Below, in pieces: positions 13,316 to 19,414 of a stretch of DNA of 33,056 nt. Position 1 is the first letter of the stretch. The number at the start of each line of letters is the position of its first letter. The position numbers and the translations under genes are program-made. Origin of the DNA: Lysobacter antibioticus HS124. Lineage in GTDB: Bacteria > Pseudomonadota > Gammaproteobacteria > Xanthomonadales > Xanthomonadaceae. The notes beneath the pieces are model-generated. The model was given only the letters and a program-made list of their open reading frames with translations. It was not told where the DNA came from and made no database searches. The stretch lies in the NCBI RefSeq assembly GCF_000336385.2, contig NZ_HG424455.1, forward strand, positions 1 through 33,056, read 5' to 3'.

Positions 13316-15730
13316 TCAGTACCGGGCGCTGAACTCCAGCCCGAACGTGCGCGGCTCGCTGACGCGGGCGCCGACGGTGCCGAGCACGGTCTTGCCGTAG
13401 GTGCCCAGCGCGTTGACGTACTGGTGGTCGAACAGATTGTTCGCGTAGGCGGCCAAGCCCCAGCGGCCCTGCGGCGAGGTCCAGGCCAGGCGCAGGTCGG
13501 TGCGGTTCTGCGCTTCGCCCAGGTCCAGCGCCGGGCTCACCCCGCAGCGGTTCTGCGAGCGCGACTCGTCGCTGCAGCGGACCTTGCCGCGGTAGGCGTG
13601 GCGCAGCGAGGCGCGCAGGTCGCCGCGACCGCCCAGATCCCAGCGGTAGTGCGCGCCGCCGGCGAACGACCAGTACGGCAGGCCGGTCGGGTCGCCGCTG
13701 GCGTCGATGCCGTCGGCGGTGACGTAGTTCTTGTAGGTGGAATCGATGAAGCCGGCGTTGAAGTCCAGGCCGAAGGCGTCGCTGACCTGCCAGCGCAGGT
13801 CGAAGTCCAGGCCATAGGCTTCCAGGTCGGAGGTATCGATCACGAAACGCGGGATGTCGGTGCTGTTGTCCAGCCGCACCGCCTGGCGGTTGTCGTAGAC
13901 GTAGTAGTAGACCGAGGCGTTGAGCTGCAGGCGCTGGTCCGGGAAGGCCTTCTTGATCCCGGTCTCGAAGTTCCAGACGTCCTCGTTCTCGAAGCTGCTG
14001 CCGATCTGCAGCGAGTTGAAGCCGCCGGCCTTGTAGCCCTTGGCCAGCGAGGCGAAGACCATGGTGTCGTCGTCGAAATGGTAGTCGACGACGAAGCGCG
14101 GGCTGAAATCGGTCCAACTGTCGGAAGTTCGCCGCAGGACGCCCTTGTTCATCAGCGCAGGCGGGTCGATGAAGGCGACGTCGAAGACGAAGAACTCGCG
14201 CGGGATCCCGGCCAGATCGAAGAAACCCAGCGCGTCGAGCTGGTCCAGCGCAGCGTCGAGTTCCGGCGCCGAACGCGGCGTGTTGAGCCAGCTGAACTTC
14301 TTCTCGTCGCGGGTGTAGCGCAGGCCCACGGTCAGATTGAGCTTGTCGGTGGCGTGCCAGATCACGTCGCCGAACACCGCGTAGGCGCGGGTGTCCAGGG
14401 TGTTGTTGAACTTCTCGTTCCAACGGTCGCCGAGCAGGCTGATCGGAATGCCGAGCGCGCCGAGCTGCTGGTCGACGTAGCCGAACAGGTAGCCGGTCGG
14501 GGTCGGCGCCAGGCCGAGGTTATGGACGATGGTGTCGACCGAGTCGGTCATCGCGTTGACTTCGCTGGTCTGCCTGGCGCGCTCGTCGAAATAGCTGGCG
14601 CCGGCGACCCAGTCGATCTTGTCGGTGCTGCCGGCGAACTTGAACTCCTGGTAGAAGCTGCGGTTGCTCTCGGTGTTGGTCGAGTCGACATAGAGATAGC
14701 GGCGGTTGGTACCGTCTTCTTCGACCCGGTTGAGCGAGTCGTAATCGCGCCACGAGGTGGTCGAGGTGAAGCCGCCCCAGTCGGTGCCGTGATCGACGAT
14801 CAGGGTGACGCCGTCGAAGCGCCGCGATTCCTCGTTGCCCTCGGCGTCGCTGAAGGTCGGCACCTTGCGCGGATCGAGATAGGCCGACTCGTCGACCGGC
14901 AGTGCCGGCAGGCCCGGCGCCGGCGGCAGGGCGACGATGCCGGTCGTGGCCTGCCCGAGCTGATCCAGACTCTCATGATCCCAGCTCAGCAGCACCGAGG
15001 TGCGCTCGCCGAGCCGGGTCTTGAACGCCGCGCGCGTGGCCCAGTTGTTTTCCGGATTGAGATCGCGTCCGGTCTGCGCATCCTGAATCCAGCCGTCGGC
15101 GTGATTGATCAAGGCATTGAAGCGGAACGCCGAGTTCTCGCTGACCGGCAGGTTGAGCATGCCGTCGACGTACTGCTTGCCGTGGTTGCCGACGCGCAGC
15201 TTGGCCGCCACTTCGGTCGCCGCGGTGCTGGGCTTGCGGGTCACGATCGAGATCGCGCCGGCGGCGGTATTGCGGCCGAACAAGGTGCCCTGCGGCCCTT
15301 TCAGCACTTCGATCCGCTCCACGTCGGTGAACGGCAGCAGCACGCCGCCGCCACGGCCGGCATAGACGCCGTCGACGTAGACGCCGACCGCCGGATCGGT
15401 GCCGATGCCGAAGTCGTCGGTGCTGATGCCGCGCAGTTGGAACCCGGGCTGGGTCGGCTGCTGACTGTCGACCACCAGGCCGGGCACGAAGCTGTCCAGG
15501 TCGCCCAGGTCCTGCGCGGCGACCTCGTCGATCAGCTGGTCGGTGACCACCTGCAGCGCGATCGGCACGTCCTGCAGCTCCTGCTCGCGGCTCTGCGCGG
15601 TGACGGTGATCTTGTCCAACTCCTTGGGCTGATCCGGCGTTTGCGCCGCAGCGGGCAGGAAGGCGCCACCGCACAACGCGGCGATGGCGGTGCCGGTCGC
15701 GACGACCAGGCGGTGTTTGCGCAACGACAT
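13316..15730 (-). CDS. TonB-dependent outer-membrane receptor
   Basis: An 804-aa ligand-gated outer-membrane barrel driven by TonB-ExbBD. A Sec signal peptide (MSLRKHRLVVATGTAIAALC..., cleavage likely after AAAQ near residue 30) precedes DKITVTAQSREQELQDVPIAL, a TonB-box/plug entry. The plug carries GFQLRGISTDDFGIGTDPAVG, VYVDGVYAGR, VERIEVLKGPQGTLFGRNTAAGAISIVTRKP, all standard plug blocks. The rest is a barrel (about 170-804) ending FGLEFSARY with an aromatic terminal residue. There is no N-terminal signalling domain, so it does not itself drive a sigma/anti-sigma system. GGGGAG lies upstream of the ATG. It is the third gene after the beta-helix and dihaem cytochrome lipoproteins. Resemblance is to the broad Pesticin/FyuA-like receptor type common in Sphingomonas and Xanthomonads; the ligand is unknown. 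Confidence 0.95.
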   Translation of the reverse strand: MSLRKHRLVVATGTAIAALCGGAFLPAAAQTPDQPKELDKITVTAQSREQELQDVPIALQVVTDQLIDEVAAQDLGDLDSFVPGLVVDSQQPTQPGFQLRGISTDDFGIGTDPAVGVYVDGVYAGRGGGVLLPFTDVERIEVLKGPQGTLFGRNTAAGAISIVTRKPSTAATEVAAKLRVGNHGKQYVDGMLNLPVSENSAFRFNALINHADGWIQDAQTGRDLNPENNWATRAAFKTRLGERTSVLLSWDHESLDQLGQATTGIVALPPAPGLPALPVDESAYLDPRKVPTFSDAEGNEESRRFDGVTLIVDHGTDWGGFTSTTSWRDYDSLNRVEEDGTNRRYLYVDSTNTESNRSFYQEFKFAGSTDKIDWVAGASYFDERARQTSEVNAMTDSVDTIVHNLGLAPTPTGYLFGYVDQQLGALGIPISLLGDRWNEKFNNTLDTRAYAVFGDVIWHATDKLNLTVGLRYTRDEKKFSWLNTPRSAPELDAALDQLDALGFFDLAGIPREFFVFDVAFIDPPALMNKGVLRRTSDSWTDFSPRFVVDYHFDDDTMVFASLAKGYKAGGFNSLQIGSSFENEDVWNFETGIKKAFPDQRLQLNASVYYYVYDNRQAVRLDNSTDIPRFVIDTSDLEAYGLDFDLRWQVSDAFGLDFNAGFIDSTYKNYVTADGIDASGDPTGLPYWSFAGGAHYRWDLGGRGDLRASLRHAYRGKVRCSDESRSQNRCGVSPALDLGEAQNRTDLRLAWTSPQGRWGLAAYANNLFDHQYVNALGTYGKTVLGTVGARVSEPRTFGLEFSARY

Positions 15731-15800
15731 CGAAAGCTCCCCTCTCGTTCGTTCCAGACCCGAACGCGCGTATTCGGCGCGTTCCCCAACCGCCGGGCGC

Positions 15801-16940
15801 CTAGCCGCAGCTCCCCTGCTGCGCGGTGATCCAATCGCGGATCAGTTGTACGCCCTCGGCATGCACCACGCTGCGACCGAGTTCCGGCATCATCACCGCC
15901 GGATCGTCGCTGAGCATGCGATAGACCAAAATCGATTCGTCCGGCTTGCCCGGCACCAGGCCGTAGCGGCGGTCGCCGGTGCCCTTGCCCGCTGCGATCG
16001 GCAGCTTGCAGCGCCCCAGCCGCAGCGGCTCGCGAGTGGCCGCGTCCAGCCAGAGGCCGGAGGTGTTGCCGGGCCCGCTCGGGCTGTGGCAGTGGCCGCA
16101 ATTGACGTCCAGGTACGCACGCGCCTTGGCATCCAGCGGCGCGCCCGGGTCGCGCCAGTTGGCGGCGCGCGGCGCGGCCTGCGGCGCCGGCGCACCGCGC
16201 AGGTAGCCGGCGCGGGTCCAGCGCGCGATCTGATTGGCCAAGCCGTCGTCGTAGGCGAAATCGCGATTGAGTTGGCGCGCCTTCGGTCCGATCGGCTGCA
16301 GCGCCTTGCTCTTCATGTCGGTGCCGTGGCAACCGGCGCACTGGTTCTGGTCCGGCACCTGATATTGCGCCGGTTCGCTGCGTCCGTCGGCGCCGGTCAA
16401 GCGCAACGGCACCAACTCGCCGGCGCGCATCAACCGCGCCTGAGTCTGCTGTTCGTTCCAGACATAGGGCAGCGCGATCCAACCCTCGCGACGCCGCACC
16501 AGCAACCGGGTTTCGACCAGCCGCACCTTGCTCAGCTCCAGCCCTCCGCCGCGCAGGTCCGGGCCGTCGTCGGCGCTGCGCAACACCGTATCGCCCTCGC
16601 CGCGCGGGTAGTAGAAGGTCTTACTGAGAATGGTGCCGACCGGGAAGTCGAACGCGCGCTCGGCGTCGTAGGCCGCGGCCTGCCCCTGCGGCATCCACAC
16701 CGTGCGCAGCTTGTGCGCGTAGTCGGAGAACAGCGGCGTGTTGAGGTCGTAGGGCATCACGCCCCGGTTCAGGCGCAGGCGCCCGTCGGCGACGCGCAGC
16801 AGGTTCCATTCGGCCAGATCCGCCGGCTGGCCTTCGGCGAAGAAGCGCACCGGCGGCGGCGCGGCTTCCCGCGCGCACGCCGCCAGGCACAGCGACAGCA
16901 ACAACCCGATCCAACCGCGGCCCATCGCGTTCGTTCGCAT
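15801..16940 (-). CDS. Dihaem c-type cytochrome lipoprotein (SO2930 / TIGR03806-like)
   Basis: A 379-aa lipoprotein: signal sequence with lipobox LAAC (C22). Two haem c attachment motifs are visible, CAGCH at residues 201-205 and CGHCH at 281-285, so it is exported and matured in the periplasm. The N-terminal half (about 30-195) contains NRGVMPYDLNTPLFSDYAHKLRTVWMP and a predicted beta-rich domain; with the two CxxCH sites this matches my recollection of family TIGR03806 (HNE_0200 / SO2930), which occurs next to TIGR03805 beta-helix proteins and has no known function. A late Met pair in AVMMPELG may supply an axial ligand. The ATG is three bases past the beta-helix stop, indicating one operon. 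An alternative ATG at 16925 is possible. A periplasmic electron-accepting role is inferred. Confidence 0.88.
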   Translation of the reverse strand: MRTNAMGRGWIGLLLSLCLAACAREAAPPPVRFFAEGQPADLAEWNLLRVADGRLRLNRGVMPYDLNTPLFSDYAHKLRTVWMPQGQAAAYDAERAFDFPVGTILSKTFYYPRGEGDTVLRSADDGPDLRGGGLELSKVRLVETRLLVRRREGWIALPYVWNEQQTQARLMRAGELVPLRLTGADGRSEPAQYQVPDQNQCAGCHGTDMKSKALQPIGPKARQLNRDFAYDDGLANQIARWTRAGYLRGAPAPQAAPRAANWRDPGAPLDAKARAYLDVNCGHCHSPSGPGNTSGLWLDAATREPLRLGRCKLPIAAGKGTGDRRYGLVPGKPDESILVYRMLSDDPAVMMPELGRSVVHAEGVQLIRDWITAQQGSCG

Positions 16941-16943
16941 CGA

Positions 16944-18176
<1,233 letters not shown>

Positions 18177-18204
18177 GGGTCTCTCCGGATTTGGCTTGCG
18201 GTGC

Positions 18205-18299
18205 GCGGATGCGACGCCGGTCCGCATCGCTCCGTGCCCCCGCACGGCTAAGCCAGGAGTCTCCGCCGGGGCCGTGAGCGCGCGTGAGGGCGGATGCGG
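18205..18299. promoter_or_regulatory. Repeated GCGGATGCG motifs in the divergent control region
   Basis: GCGGATGCG occurs at 18205-18213 and again at 18290-18298, 85 bases apart (about eight helical turns). A partial inverted copy, CCGCATC, stands at 18222-18228. They are the only repeated words I find between the regulator and the operon and are candidate operator half-sites. No convincing -10/-35 pair is visible in either direction. Confidence 0.35.
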
Positions 18300-18349
18300 C
18301 ACACTAGGGGGGCAATCGCGGTCAACCGTGCGGCCAGGAGCGTGGGGAG

Positions 18350-19414
18350 ATGCGCCAGCCATCCGATCGGGACCCACCCCAGGACGACATCGCGATGATG
18401 TCGCCGAACCTGCTGTGGGGTCTGCTGGAAACCGCGGACCGGCTCGGCGCGCCCAGCGACGACTGGTTCGCCGGTACCGGGCTCAGCCGCGCCCAGGTCA
18501 GCGACCCGGGCGTGCGCCTGCCCGACCGCCCCACCGCGGTGGTGATCGAACGCGCGCTGCGGGTGCTGCCGGCAAGCATCGGCCTGGACATCGGCCACGC
18601 CCAGCACATCGGCAACTTCGGCCTGCTCGGCCTGGCCATGACCACCGCGCCGACCTTCGGCGACGCACTGCAGATCGGCCTGCGCTTCACCCCGGTGGTC
18701 GGCAGCCTGATGCGCTTCGTCGAAAGCGCGTCCGAGCCCGGCACCCTGGCCTTGGCCGGCCGGATGACCCTGACCTACCCGGCGATCCACCGTTTCGTCT
18801 GCGAAGAGTTCTTCAGCAGTTGCCTGGCGCTGGCGCGCGGCCTGGTCGGCGAGCGGTTGCGGCCGCTGCGGGTCGAGTTCAGCTACCCGGCCCCGCCTTA
18901 CGAGTCGCGCTATCGCGACGTGTTCGATTGCCCGCTCGCCTTCGCCCAGCCGCAAGACCGGCTGGTGCTGGATGCGCAGTGGCTGGCCGCGCCGTTGCCG
19001 ACCCACAACCCGATCGCCTCGCGCCAGGTGCTGGCGCTGTGCGAGGCGCAGATGCCGCAAGGCCCGCTGCCCGGCGAAGTCACCGCCGCGGTGGAACGCC
19101 TGTTGCGCGCGCAACTGGCCCAGGACCCCAAGCTGGCCGGTATCGCCGCGCAGTTGCACGTCAGCGAGCGCACCCTGCGCCGCCAGCTCACCGGCGAGGG
19201 CACCAGCTTCCACGAGATCCACGACCGCCTGCGCATCGACCGGGCCTATGCCCTGCTACGCGAACGCCAGCCGACCATCGCCGCGGTCGGCGCCGCGGTC
19301 GGCTACAAGGATCCGCGCGATTTCCGCCGCGCTTTCAAGCGCCTGACCGGCGAAACGCCGCGCGCCTTGCGCGAGCGGTTTTTGTCTGGGCGGGGATTGG
19401 GAATTGGGGATTAG
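18350..19414 (+). CDS. AraC-family transcriptional regulator (OruR/ArgR-like N-terminal domain)
   Basis: A 354-aa regulator. The N-terminal ligand domain (about 20-230), with LLWGLLETADRLGAP, DIGHAQHIGNFGLLGLAMTTAPTFGDALQIGLRF and a VCEEFF segment, fits the Arabinose_bd (PF12625) type found in OruR-like activators. The C-terminal AraC domain (about 245-345) has two helix-turn-helix units: LAGIAAQLHVSERTLRRQLTGEGTSF and TIAAVGAAVGYKDPRDFRRAFKRLTGETP. AGGAG lies nine bases before the ATG. It diverges from the beta-helix/cytochrome/receptor operon and is its likely regulator; the inducer is unknown. The last eight or so residues (GRGLGIGD) and the stop codon are encoded by GGGATT repeats, so the native C-terminus has been replaced or extended. 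Confidence 0.93.
   Translation: MRQPSDRDPPQDDIAMMSPNLLWGLLETADRLGAPSDDWFAGTGLSRAQVSDPGVRLPDRPTAVVIERALRVLPASIGLDIGHAQHIGNFGLLGLAMTTAPTFGDALQIGLRFTPVVGSLMRFVESASEPGTLALAGRMTLTYPAIHRFVCEEFFSSCLALARGLVGERLRPLRVEFSYPAPPYESRYRDVFDCPLAFAQPQDRLVLDAQWLAAPLPTHNPIASRQVLALCEAQMPQGPLPGEVTAAVERLLRAQLAQDPKLAGIAAQLHVSERTLRRQLTGEGTSFHEIHDRLRIDRAYALLRERQPTIAAVGAAVGYKDPRDFRRAFKRLTGETPRALRERFLSGRGLGIGD

What the first reader, a model, noticed from the sequence alone, without database searches (positions are those of the whole stretch)
13316..19414. Beta-helix lipoprotein + dihaem cytochrome + TonB receptor + AraC-type regulator: a candidate uncharacterised periplasmic oxidation/uptake system
Seen: three leftward genes, the first two 3 bases apart and the third 70 bases on, face a divergent AraC/OruR-type regulator. 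The first two encode a beta-helix lipoprotein and a lipoprotein with two CxxCH sites; the third is a TonB-dependent receptor. Known: the first two correspond, as I recall them, to TIGR03805 and TIGR03806 (SO2929/SO2930-like), families that occur as a pair and have no assigned function. Inference: the receptor imports a ligand the beta-helix protein binds or cleaves, the cytochrome takes up electrons from its oxidation, and the regulator senses ligand or product. A sugar polymer, alcohol or aromatic are all possible.
Basis: partly seen in the sequence, partly recalled or inferred. Interest (0 to 1): 0.75.

Follow-up and report, generated by a model that had tools for sequence, protein, structure and literature searches.

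The report
Four-gene orphan redox and uptake cassette
Four neighbouring genes that are gained or lost together in this bacterium's relatives appear to form a self-contained system that takes up and oxidises an unknown compound at the outer membrane, built on an unusual pairing of a beta-helix protein with a two-haem cytochrome.

Summary
In detail: at 13316-19414 a TonB receptor, a dihaem cytochrome (TIGR03806) and a beta-helix lipoprotein (TIGR03805), the last two over their curated cut-offs, face a divergent AraC/PF12625 regulator. The four genes are a real unit: in 119 sampled family genomes the same 26 carry all four, and the other 93 carry none at comparable score. All 26 keep the order; 24 sit between ridA and recG, and 28 of 28 examined genomes without the pair have ridA and recG adjacent. 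A conserved operator-like block lies between beta-helix and regulator and was found once per genome in 14 of 16 searched, control 0. Elsewhere beta-helix and cytochrome can be one chain, while more distant cytochrome relatives are fused, in the same order, to a glucose/sorbosone-dehydrogenase-like domain. Some clusters add an aldehyde or PQQ alcohol dehydrogenase. Best reading: a ligand-induced outer-membrane oxidation module whose beta-helix stands where a dehydrogenase would. The substrate is unknown.

The parts
16944..18176 (-). Right-handed parallel beta-helix lipoprotein (BH), TIGR03805
   Evidence: TIGR03805 425.0 bits over cut-off; AF2 model mean pLDDT 91.7; lipobox AAAC, its Cys present in 60 of 61 aligned relatives, the other a gap; nearest solved folds AlgE modules, E 7e-9
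15801..16940 (-). Dihaem c-type cytochrome lipoprotein (CYT), TIGR03806 / SO2930 family, with an all-beta N-terminal part
   Evidence: TIGR03806 391.9 bits over cut-off; AF2 model mean pLDDT 91.4; two CxxCH invariant in 17 sequences
16326..16340 (-). First haem-binding motif CAGCH (residues 201-205)
   Evidence: sequence; columns C201, C204, H205 invariant
16086..16100 (-). Second haem-binding motif CGHCH (residues 281-285)
   Evidence: sequence; columns C281, C284, H285 invariant
13316..15730 (-). TonB-dependent receptor (plug and barrel)
   Evidence: PF07715 and PF00593 over gathering; orthologue in the 26 of 119 family genomes with the pair, none comparable in the other 93
18350..19414 (+). 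Divergent AraC-family regulator with PF12625 N-terminal domain
   Evidence: PF12625 139.8, PF12833 71.7 bits; orthologue (276.8 bits or more) in the same 26 of 119 genomes, next best 142.2
18286..18325 (-). Conserved operator-like block between BH and AraC (TTGACCG...TTGCCCCCC...TAGTGTGCCG...GCCCTC)
   Evidence: seed with 0-1 mismatch 66-168 bases before BH in 35 of 39 loci; 36-base pattern found once in the window's genome, control 0

Best explanation
A self-contained, ligand-induced outer-membrane oxidation and uptake cassette. SHOWN: four genes gained or lost as a unit; a conserved operator-like block found once per genome; two lipoprotein-like proteins that elsewhere are one polypeptide. 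INFERRED: the beta-helix and the dihaem cytochrome form one complex at the outer membrane; the beta-helix holds the substrate in the position where more distant cytochrome relatives carry a glucose/sorbosone-dehydrogenase-like domain, and the cytochrome takes the electrons and passes them to the periplasmic cytochrome pool. The receptor brings the substrate or its product across the outer membrane. The AraC protein senses the ligand in the cell and activates the operon through the operator. Where an ALDH is attached it oxidises an aldehyde product further. Substrate class (sugar-like, alcohol/aldehyde or aromatic) is not resolved.
For: Unit: the same 26 of 119 genomes have all four; 26 of 26 in the same order; empty site in 28 of 28 examined; L099, L100 and L112 carry the whole unit at other sites. 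Operator. Pair as one complex: in the 36 loci outside the family that were over the TIGR03806 cut-off, 32 have BH adjacent and 4 have it fused to CYT; 4 of 13 further below-cut-off loci are also fused (both TIGR models match in the 7 fusions scanned). Oxidation: 8 more distant CYT relatives lie C-terminal to a GSDH-like domain (5 of 5 scanned reach PF07995; motifs HxxG and GxRNP in 8 of 8). Neighbours: ALDH-cluster gene within five genes in 13 of 80 named loci (two members scanned); ALDH, AdhP and a PQQ-ADH in Novosphingobium; PQQ_enz_alc_DH 673.7 bits over cut-off in L227. Receptor clade: linked receptors in distant loci (e.g. L198, 776 bits) resemble the window's far more than any unlinked receptor of the 119 family genomes (261.8 bits at most).
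Against: No redox cofactor is evident in the beta-helix; its nearest solved folds are non-redox polysaccharide epimerases and lyases. The GSDH-fused cytochromes score below the TIGR03806 cut-off, so they are relatives, not members; the best solved-structure matches of one such fusion are Hedgehog-interacting proteins (84 bits), ahead of quinoprotein glucose dehydrogenase (48.5 bits). 23 of 26 family genomes with the unit lack a PqqE over cut-off, so PQQ is not generally needed. The attached-type ALDH has relatives in all 119 family genomes and is no marker of the unit. In distant loci the AraC gene is mostly absent and the receptor present in a minority, and many neighbours are unrelated. Direction of electron flow, location and ligand are untested.
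Confidence: 0.45

Rival explanations
1. Polysaccharide or oligosaccharide use: the beta-helix is an epimerase, lyase or glycan-binding protein, the receptor imports the products, and the cytochrome oxidises a sugar product or serves another enzyme.
For: Top fold matches are AlgE4/AlgE6, RbmB lyase, PL6 lyases and inulin fructotransferases; invariant tyrosines and acidic residues recur on successive rungs. In print, Bcam1339, given a TIGR03805 prediction, lies in a Burkholderia exopolysaccharide cluster (PMC3584217, one passage; score and full membership unknown).
Against: No significant sequence match to a solved enzyme of this kind (best E 0.026 to BcAlyPL6 and 0.041 to a fructotransferase); no other carbohydrate-active gene in the unit; BH adjacent or fused to the cytochrome in 36 of 36 over-cut-off loci outside the family is odd for a plain lyase.
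Confidence: 0.2
2. Metal or haem acquisition or maturation: NosD-like beta-helix with a metal-loading or reducing cytochrome and a metal-complex receptor.
For: BH scores on PF05048 NosD (42.1 bits, over gathering 23.6); the receptor plug resembles siderophore receptors.
Against: NosD model TIGR04247 34.6 bits against cut-off 300; PF05048 and PF13229 overlap on the same repeats; no MauG/CCP family hit for the dihaem protein in Pfam at E 0.01; no metal-pathway gene in the unit.
Confidence: 0.12
3. Outer-membrane electron-transfer module that reduces external or periplasmic acceptors instead of oxidising a substrate.
For: Shewanella SO_2930 and SO_2931 are listed together as outer-membrane/extracellular cytochromes (PMC4837345, one passage); SO_2931 is counted among five outer-membrane cytochromes (PMC12175506, one passage).
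Against: The unit has a substrate-type receptor and a PF12625 regulator; relatives fused to a dehydrogenase-like domain imply electrons flowing into the haems. I did not verify the domains of the Shewanella proteins.
Confidence: 0.12
4. The receptor and regulator are chance neighbours of the conserved pair.
For: They are not kept with the pair in most of the 80 named loci.
Against: The same 26 of 119 genomes carry all four, none of the 93 others; the unit stays whole at other sites; the conserved block lies between BH and AraC.
Confidence: 0.02

Closest known systems
TIGR03805 / TIGR03806 families (HNE_0200, SO2930)
   Same: Both proteins pass the curated cut-offs; the pair is adjacent as in other loci
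   Different: Catalogued by name, function unassigned; here embedded in a conserved four-gene unit with receptor, regulator and operator-like block
Glucose/sorbosone dehydrogenase-cytochrome fusions (PF07995 + TIGR03806-like domain)
   Same: Same C-terminal dihaem domain type, same order of partners
   Different: Partner in the window is a beta-helix; cytochrome domain of the fusions is below the family cut-off; 23 of 26 family genomes with the unit lack PqqE
AlgE mannuronan C5-epimerase A-modules and PL6 lyases
   Same: Right-handed beta-helix fold, best Foldseek hits
   Different: No significant sequence relation; chemistry not redox; catalytic residues not compared
NosD (TIGR04247, PF05048)
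   Same: Right-handed beta-helix repeats
   Different: Far below the NosD family cut-off; no nos genes in the unit
QhpR / GliR / CypR AraC-type regulators
   Same: Best-scoring regulator models in NCBIfam
   Different: All below their cut-offs (143.8/250, 118.9/570, 105.3/500)
MbnH/MbnP dihaem enzyme and partner of methanobactin operons (recalled)
   Same: Dihaem protein with a partner protein and a TonB receptor nearby
   Different: No MauG/CCP hit in Pfam at E 0.01; no direct sequence comparison made

Membership tests
TIGR03805 parallel beta-helix family | score over curated cut-off 141.5 bits | tested here: met
   425.0 bits
TIGR03806 SO2930 dihaem cytochrome family | score over curated cut-off 313.3 bits | tested here: met
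   391.9 bits
TIGR03806 SO2930 dihaem cytochrome family | two haem sites CxxCH | tested here: met
   residues 201-205 and 281-285, invariant columns; haem attachment itself not testable here
TonB-dependent receptor | plug PF07715 and barrel PF00593 | tested here: met
   70.0 and 100.5 bits, over gathering
TonB-dependent siderophore receptor TIGR01783 | score over cut-off 223.5 bits | tested here: not met
   144.8 bits
AraC family with PF12625 | PF12625 and PF12833 over gathering | tested here: met
   139.8 and 71.7 bits
QhpR regulator (quinohaemoprotein amine dehydrogenase) | score over cut-off 250 bits | tested here: not met
   143.8 bits
NosD TIGR04247 | score over cut-off 300 bits | tested here: not met
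   34.6 bits
PQQ dehydrogenase system | PQQ dehydrogenase domain in the unit | tested here: not met
   none of the four proteins matches a PQQ-domain family in Pfam at E 0.01; none in the NCBIfam rows shown (4 of the receptor's 29 families not shown)
PQQ dehydrogenase system | PQQ biosynthesis in the genome | tested here: inconclusive
   PqqE over cut-off in the window's genome, but in only 3 of the 26 family genomes with the unit
AlgE-type C5-epimerase | significant sequence relation and catalytic residues | tested here: inconclusive
   fold match only; no AlgE among profile matches to E 10; residues not compared

The most novel reading that the evidence does not exclude
The right-handed beta-helix protein is itself the substrate-oxidising subunit of a haem-linked outer-membrane dehydrogenase: a polysaccharide-enzyme fold turned into a redox partner that replaces the dehydrogenase domain seen in related fusions, with its own receptor and single-target regulator.
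Probability: 0.28. Interest if true: 0.85.

Novelty: new variant of a known kind. Interest (0 to 1): 0.6.

Why it matters
TIGR03806 is over cut-off in 37 of 398 genomes sampled across the phylum. My searches of open-access papers found mentions of the families and tags but no study of what the pair does (passages). The fused forms and the dehydrogenase-fused relatives give a testable reading of the pair, and the operator-like block plus regulator give a direct route to the inducing ligand: one promoter reporter screened against compounds. If the beta-helix is catalytic it would be a new architecture for periplasmic oxidation.

Tried and rejected
Rejected: that the four genes are merely adjacent; that the pair needs PQQ (23 of 26 family genomes with the unit have no PqqE over cut-off); that the attached ALDH is a fixed member (relatives in all 119 genomes; near the pair in 13 of 80).

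Led nowhere: sequence search of solved structures with BH profiles and with CYT (one hit, E 4.6e-5, to an engineered cytochrome c555 trimer); Foldseek of CYT (no match at E 0.001, best 0.16); plasmid searches beyond Novosphingobium; locus-tag literature. Papers, all seen as passages only: PMC4837345, PMC10986466, PMC5829830, PMC5955497, PMC12175506 (Shewanella tags), PMC3584217 and PMC5847202 (TIGR03805 in a table row each), PMC3922391 (PA4926 among growth-impairing antisense inserts; that PA4926 is a member of these families is a guess from recall). All other papers were seen as search listings.

Limits: gene calls in fetched loci come from my own simple caller and some starts are wrong. The caller missed CYT in L173 and L114; tblastn or profile search finds it there. 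One search used 28 of the 93 family genomes without the pair. The k-mer control was 5 mononucleotide shuffles. The 13 below-cut-off loci (L148-L160) were picked by score from many more matches. L151 (CYT domain in a 2039 aa frame) was not analysed. Six of the 93 family genomes without the unit have weaker TIGR03806 matches (best 182.6 bits), not followed.
Full report
WHAT IS THERE. The window is G000:C16. Three leftward genes (beta-helix lipoprotein BH 18176-16944, dihaem cytochrome CYT 16940-15801, TonB receptor 15730-13316) face a rightward AraC gene (18350-19414). Gaps are 3 and 70 bases. Curated cut-offs are passed for TIGR03805, TIGR03806, PF07715, PF00593, PF12625 and PF12833. The block sits between ridA/spoT and recG (gene names from the sequences, recalled).

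IS IT A UNIT. TIGR03805 over cut-off occurs in 26 of 119 sampled family genomes. TIGR03806 over cut-off occurs in the same 26; six others have weaker matches, best 182.6 bits. The receptor orthologue scores 923.6 bits or more in 25 of the 26 and is split in two pieces (707 + 447 bits) in the other (G101); the best receptor at any other place in the 119 genomes is 261.8 bits. The AraC orthologue scores 276.8 bits or more in the same 26; the next best is 142.2. In 26 of 26 loci the order is AraC / BH-CYT-receptor with AraC divergent; 24 of 26 lie between ridA and recG. The other two (L099, L100), and L112 from another family of the order, carry the same unit elsewhere. In 28 of 28 genomes without the pair that I examined (of 93), ridA and recG are neighbours. 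So the unit is gained or lost as a block.

A DEDICATED SWITCH. In the AraC-BH region the 9-mer AGTATGCCG occurs in 19 of 27 loci; the commonest 9-mer in 5 shuffled sets reached 4. It belongs to a longer block, TTGTCCG-N-TTT-N-CCCCCC-N2-AGTATGCCG-N5-GCCCTC. The window copy reads TTGACCG...AGTGTGCCG...GCCCTC. The seed was found with 0-1 mismatch, 66-168 bases before BH, in 35 of 39 loci tabulated (27 whole-genome loci with the window and L112, 12 named loci L161-L172; two of the latter duplicate genomes of the former). The misses are L164, L165, L169 (upstream cut by the contig end) and L171 (AraC in tandem, not divergent). The two parts resemble direct repeats about two helical turns apart, the layout expected of AraC-type binding (inference). 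A 36-base pattern with up to 3 mismatches hits once each in 14 of 16 genomes chosen for carrying the unit, with 0 hits for the reversed control; each hit lies at the unit. In the two misses (G032, G070) the block is present with its left part shifted by one base (L088 and L087). The regulator therefore appears to have one target.

THE CORE PAIR. Outside the family, 36 genomes were over the TIGR03806 cut-off in the class and phylum searches (4, 32 more). All 36 loci (L112-L147) hold BH: 32 adjacent and 4 fused to CYT in one chain. Of 13 below-cut-off loci picked by score (L148-L160), 4 are BH-CYT fusions and 9 have CYT without BH. Both TIGR models match in the 7 fusions scanned. Of those 9, five were scanned and all carry PF07995 glucose/sorbosone dehydrogenase N-terminal to the cytochrome. 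Three more align along the same domain; motifs HxxG and GxRNP are present in 8 of 8 (that these mark the PQQ site is recalled). The ninth, L151, was not analysed. One such fusion (L154) matches Hedgehog-interacting proteins best among solved structures, then putative oxidoreductases and quinoprotein glucose dehydrogenase, so its activity is not proven.

CONTEXT CLUES. The ALDH-cluster gene follows the receptor directly in Dyella, Rhodanobacter, Dokdonella, Stenotrophomonas nitritireducens and one MAG (L226), lies between receptor and BH in another (L234), and is near the pair without a receptor in L221. Two members were scanned and are aldehyde dehydrogenases; the L171 copy is nearest to benzaldehyde dehydrogenase MdlD (293.5 bits, below its cut-off of 550). 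In Novosphingobium sp. EMRT-2 the annotated neighbours of the pair include TonB receptors, ALDHs, AdhP, an AraC gene and a PQQ methanol/ethanol-type dehydrogenase. In L227 (a Caulobacteraceae MAG) a PQQ alcohol dehydrogenase over cut-off is the second gene after CYT. So much of the neighbourhood is noise. In seven alphaproteobacterial loci a gene of one cluster (TetR_N in L198, the one scanned) stands beside the pair, with a receptor of this clade in 5 of the 7.

STRUCTURE. BH models as a right-handed beta-helix, mean pLDDT 91.7; nearest solved folds are AlgE4/AlgE6 C5-epimerase modules (E 7e-9, TM 0.47 on the query, 19% identity), then RbmB, PL6 lyases and fructotransferases. CYT models at 91.4 with an all-beta N-terminal part and found no solved fold at E 0.001. 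Both window proteins have lipoprotein-like starts; the BH lipobox Cys is kept in 60 of 61 aligned relatives, the other a gap. Outer-membrane sorting is inferred from the residues after the Cys (recalled rule). In print, SO_2930 is listed as outer-membrane/extracellular (PMC4837345, one passage).

HOW IT PROBABLY WORKS. Shown: gene unit, operator-like block, physical fusion of BH and CYT elsewhere, fusion of related cytochromes to a dehydrogenase-like domain. Inferred: BH holds the substrate; CYT takes electrons; the receptor imports; AraC senses. The argument for oxidation is positional: in one set of chains the N-terminal partner of this cytochrome type is a GSDH-like domain, in the other it is BH. 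Against it: those cytochromes are below the family cut-off, BH has no evident cofactor, and PqqE is missing in 23 of 26 family genomes with the unit, so BH is not a helper of a PQQ enzyme there unless PQQ is taken up.

KNOWN OR NEW. The two families are catalogued by name. Seven searches of open-access papers gave no functional study of the pair. They did give Shewanella cytochrome lists and a Burkholderia exopolysaccharide cluster with a TIGR03805-predicted protein, Bcam1339 (passages), the last of which favours the polysaccharide rival. I saw no description in that library of the four-gene unit, its operator-like block or the two kinds of fusion, but I did not search for the fusions by name, and subscription journals were not searched.

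Noticed in passing
L095 (G101:C1:343517-345914): The receptor gene is split into two reading frames (707 + 447 bits), an apparent frame break in an otherwise intact unit.
   Followed up: no
L241, 4789-8581: On a Novosphingobium plasmid a TonB receptor beside the pair appears interrupted by an IS5-family transposase gene.
   Followed up: no
L116, L117: BH and CYT are one 886 aa frame, and a second CYT-type cytochrome lies nearby.
   Followed up: partly
L177, L184, L187, L198, L204, L213, L233: A gene of one cluster (TetR_N in L198) stands beside the pair, with a receptor of this clade in 5 of 7: the regulator seems to have been exchanged.
   Followed up: partly
L150, L152, L154-L158, L160: Glucose/sorbosone-dehydrogenase-like domains fused to a TIGR03806-like dihaem domain, possibly haem-linked sugar dehydrogenases.
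   Followed up: partly
L161 and L162: Two Stenotrophomonas carry the unit at different sites: S. nitritireducens elsewhere and with an ALDH, the other between ridA and recG.
   Followed up: no
G000:C34:6198-7259: The window's genome has a PqqE over cut-off, which 23 of the 26 family genomes with the unit lack.
   Followed up: no
G076:C27:305313-306233, G020:C9:8598-9530, G033:C23:133300-134205, G027:C9:81574-82512: Below-cut-off TIGR03806 relatives (160-183 bits) in family genomes that lack the unit.
   Followed up: no
L151, 8862-9831: CYT domain inside a 2039 aa open frame; partner domains not examined.
   Followed up: no
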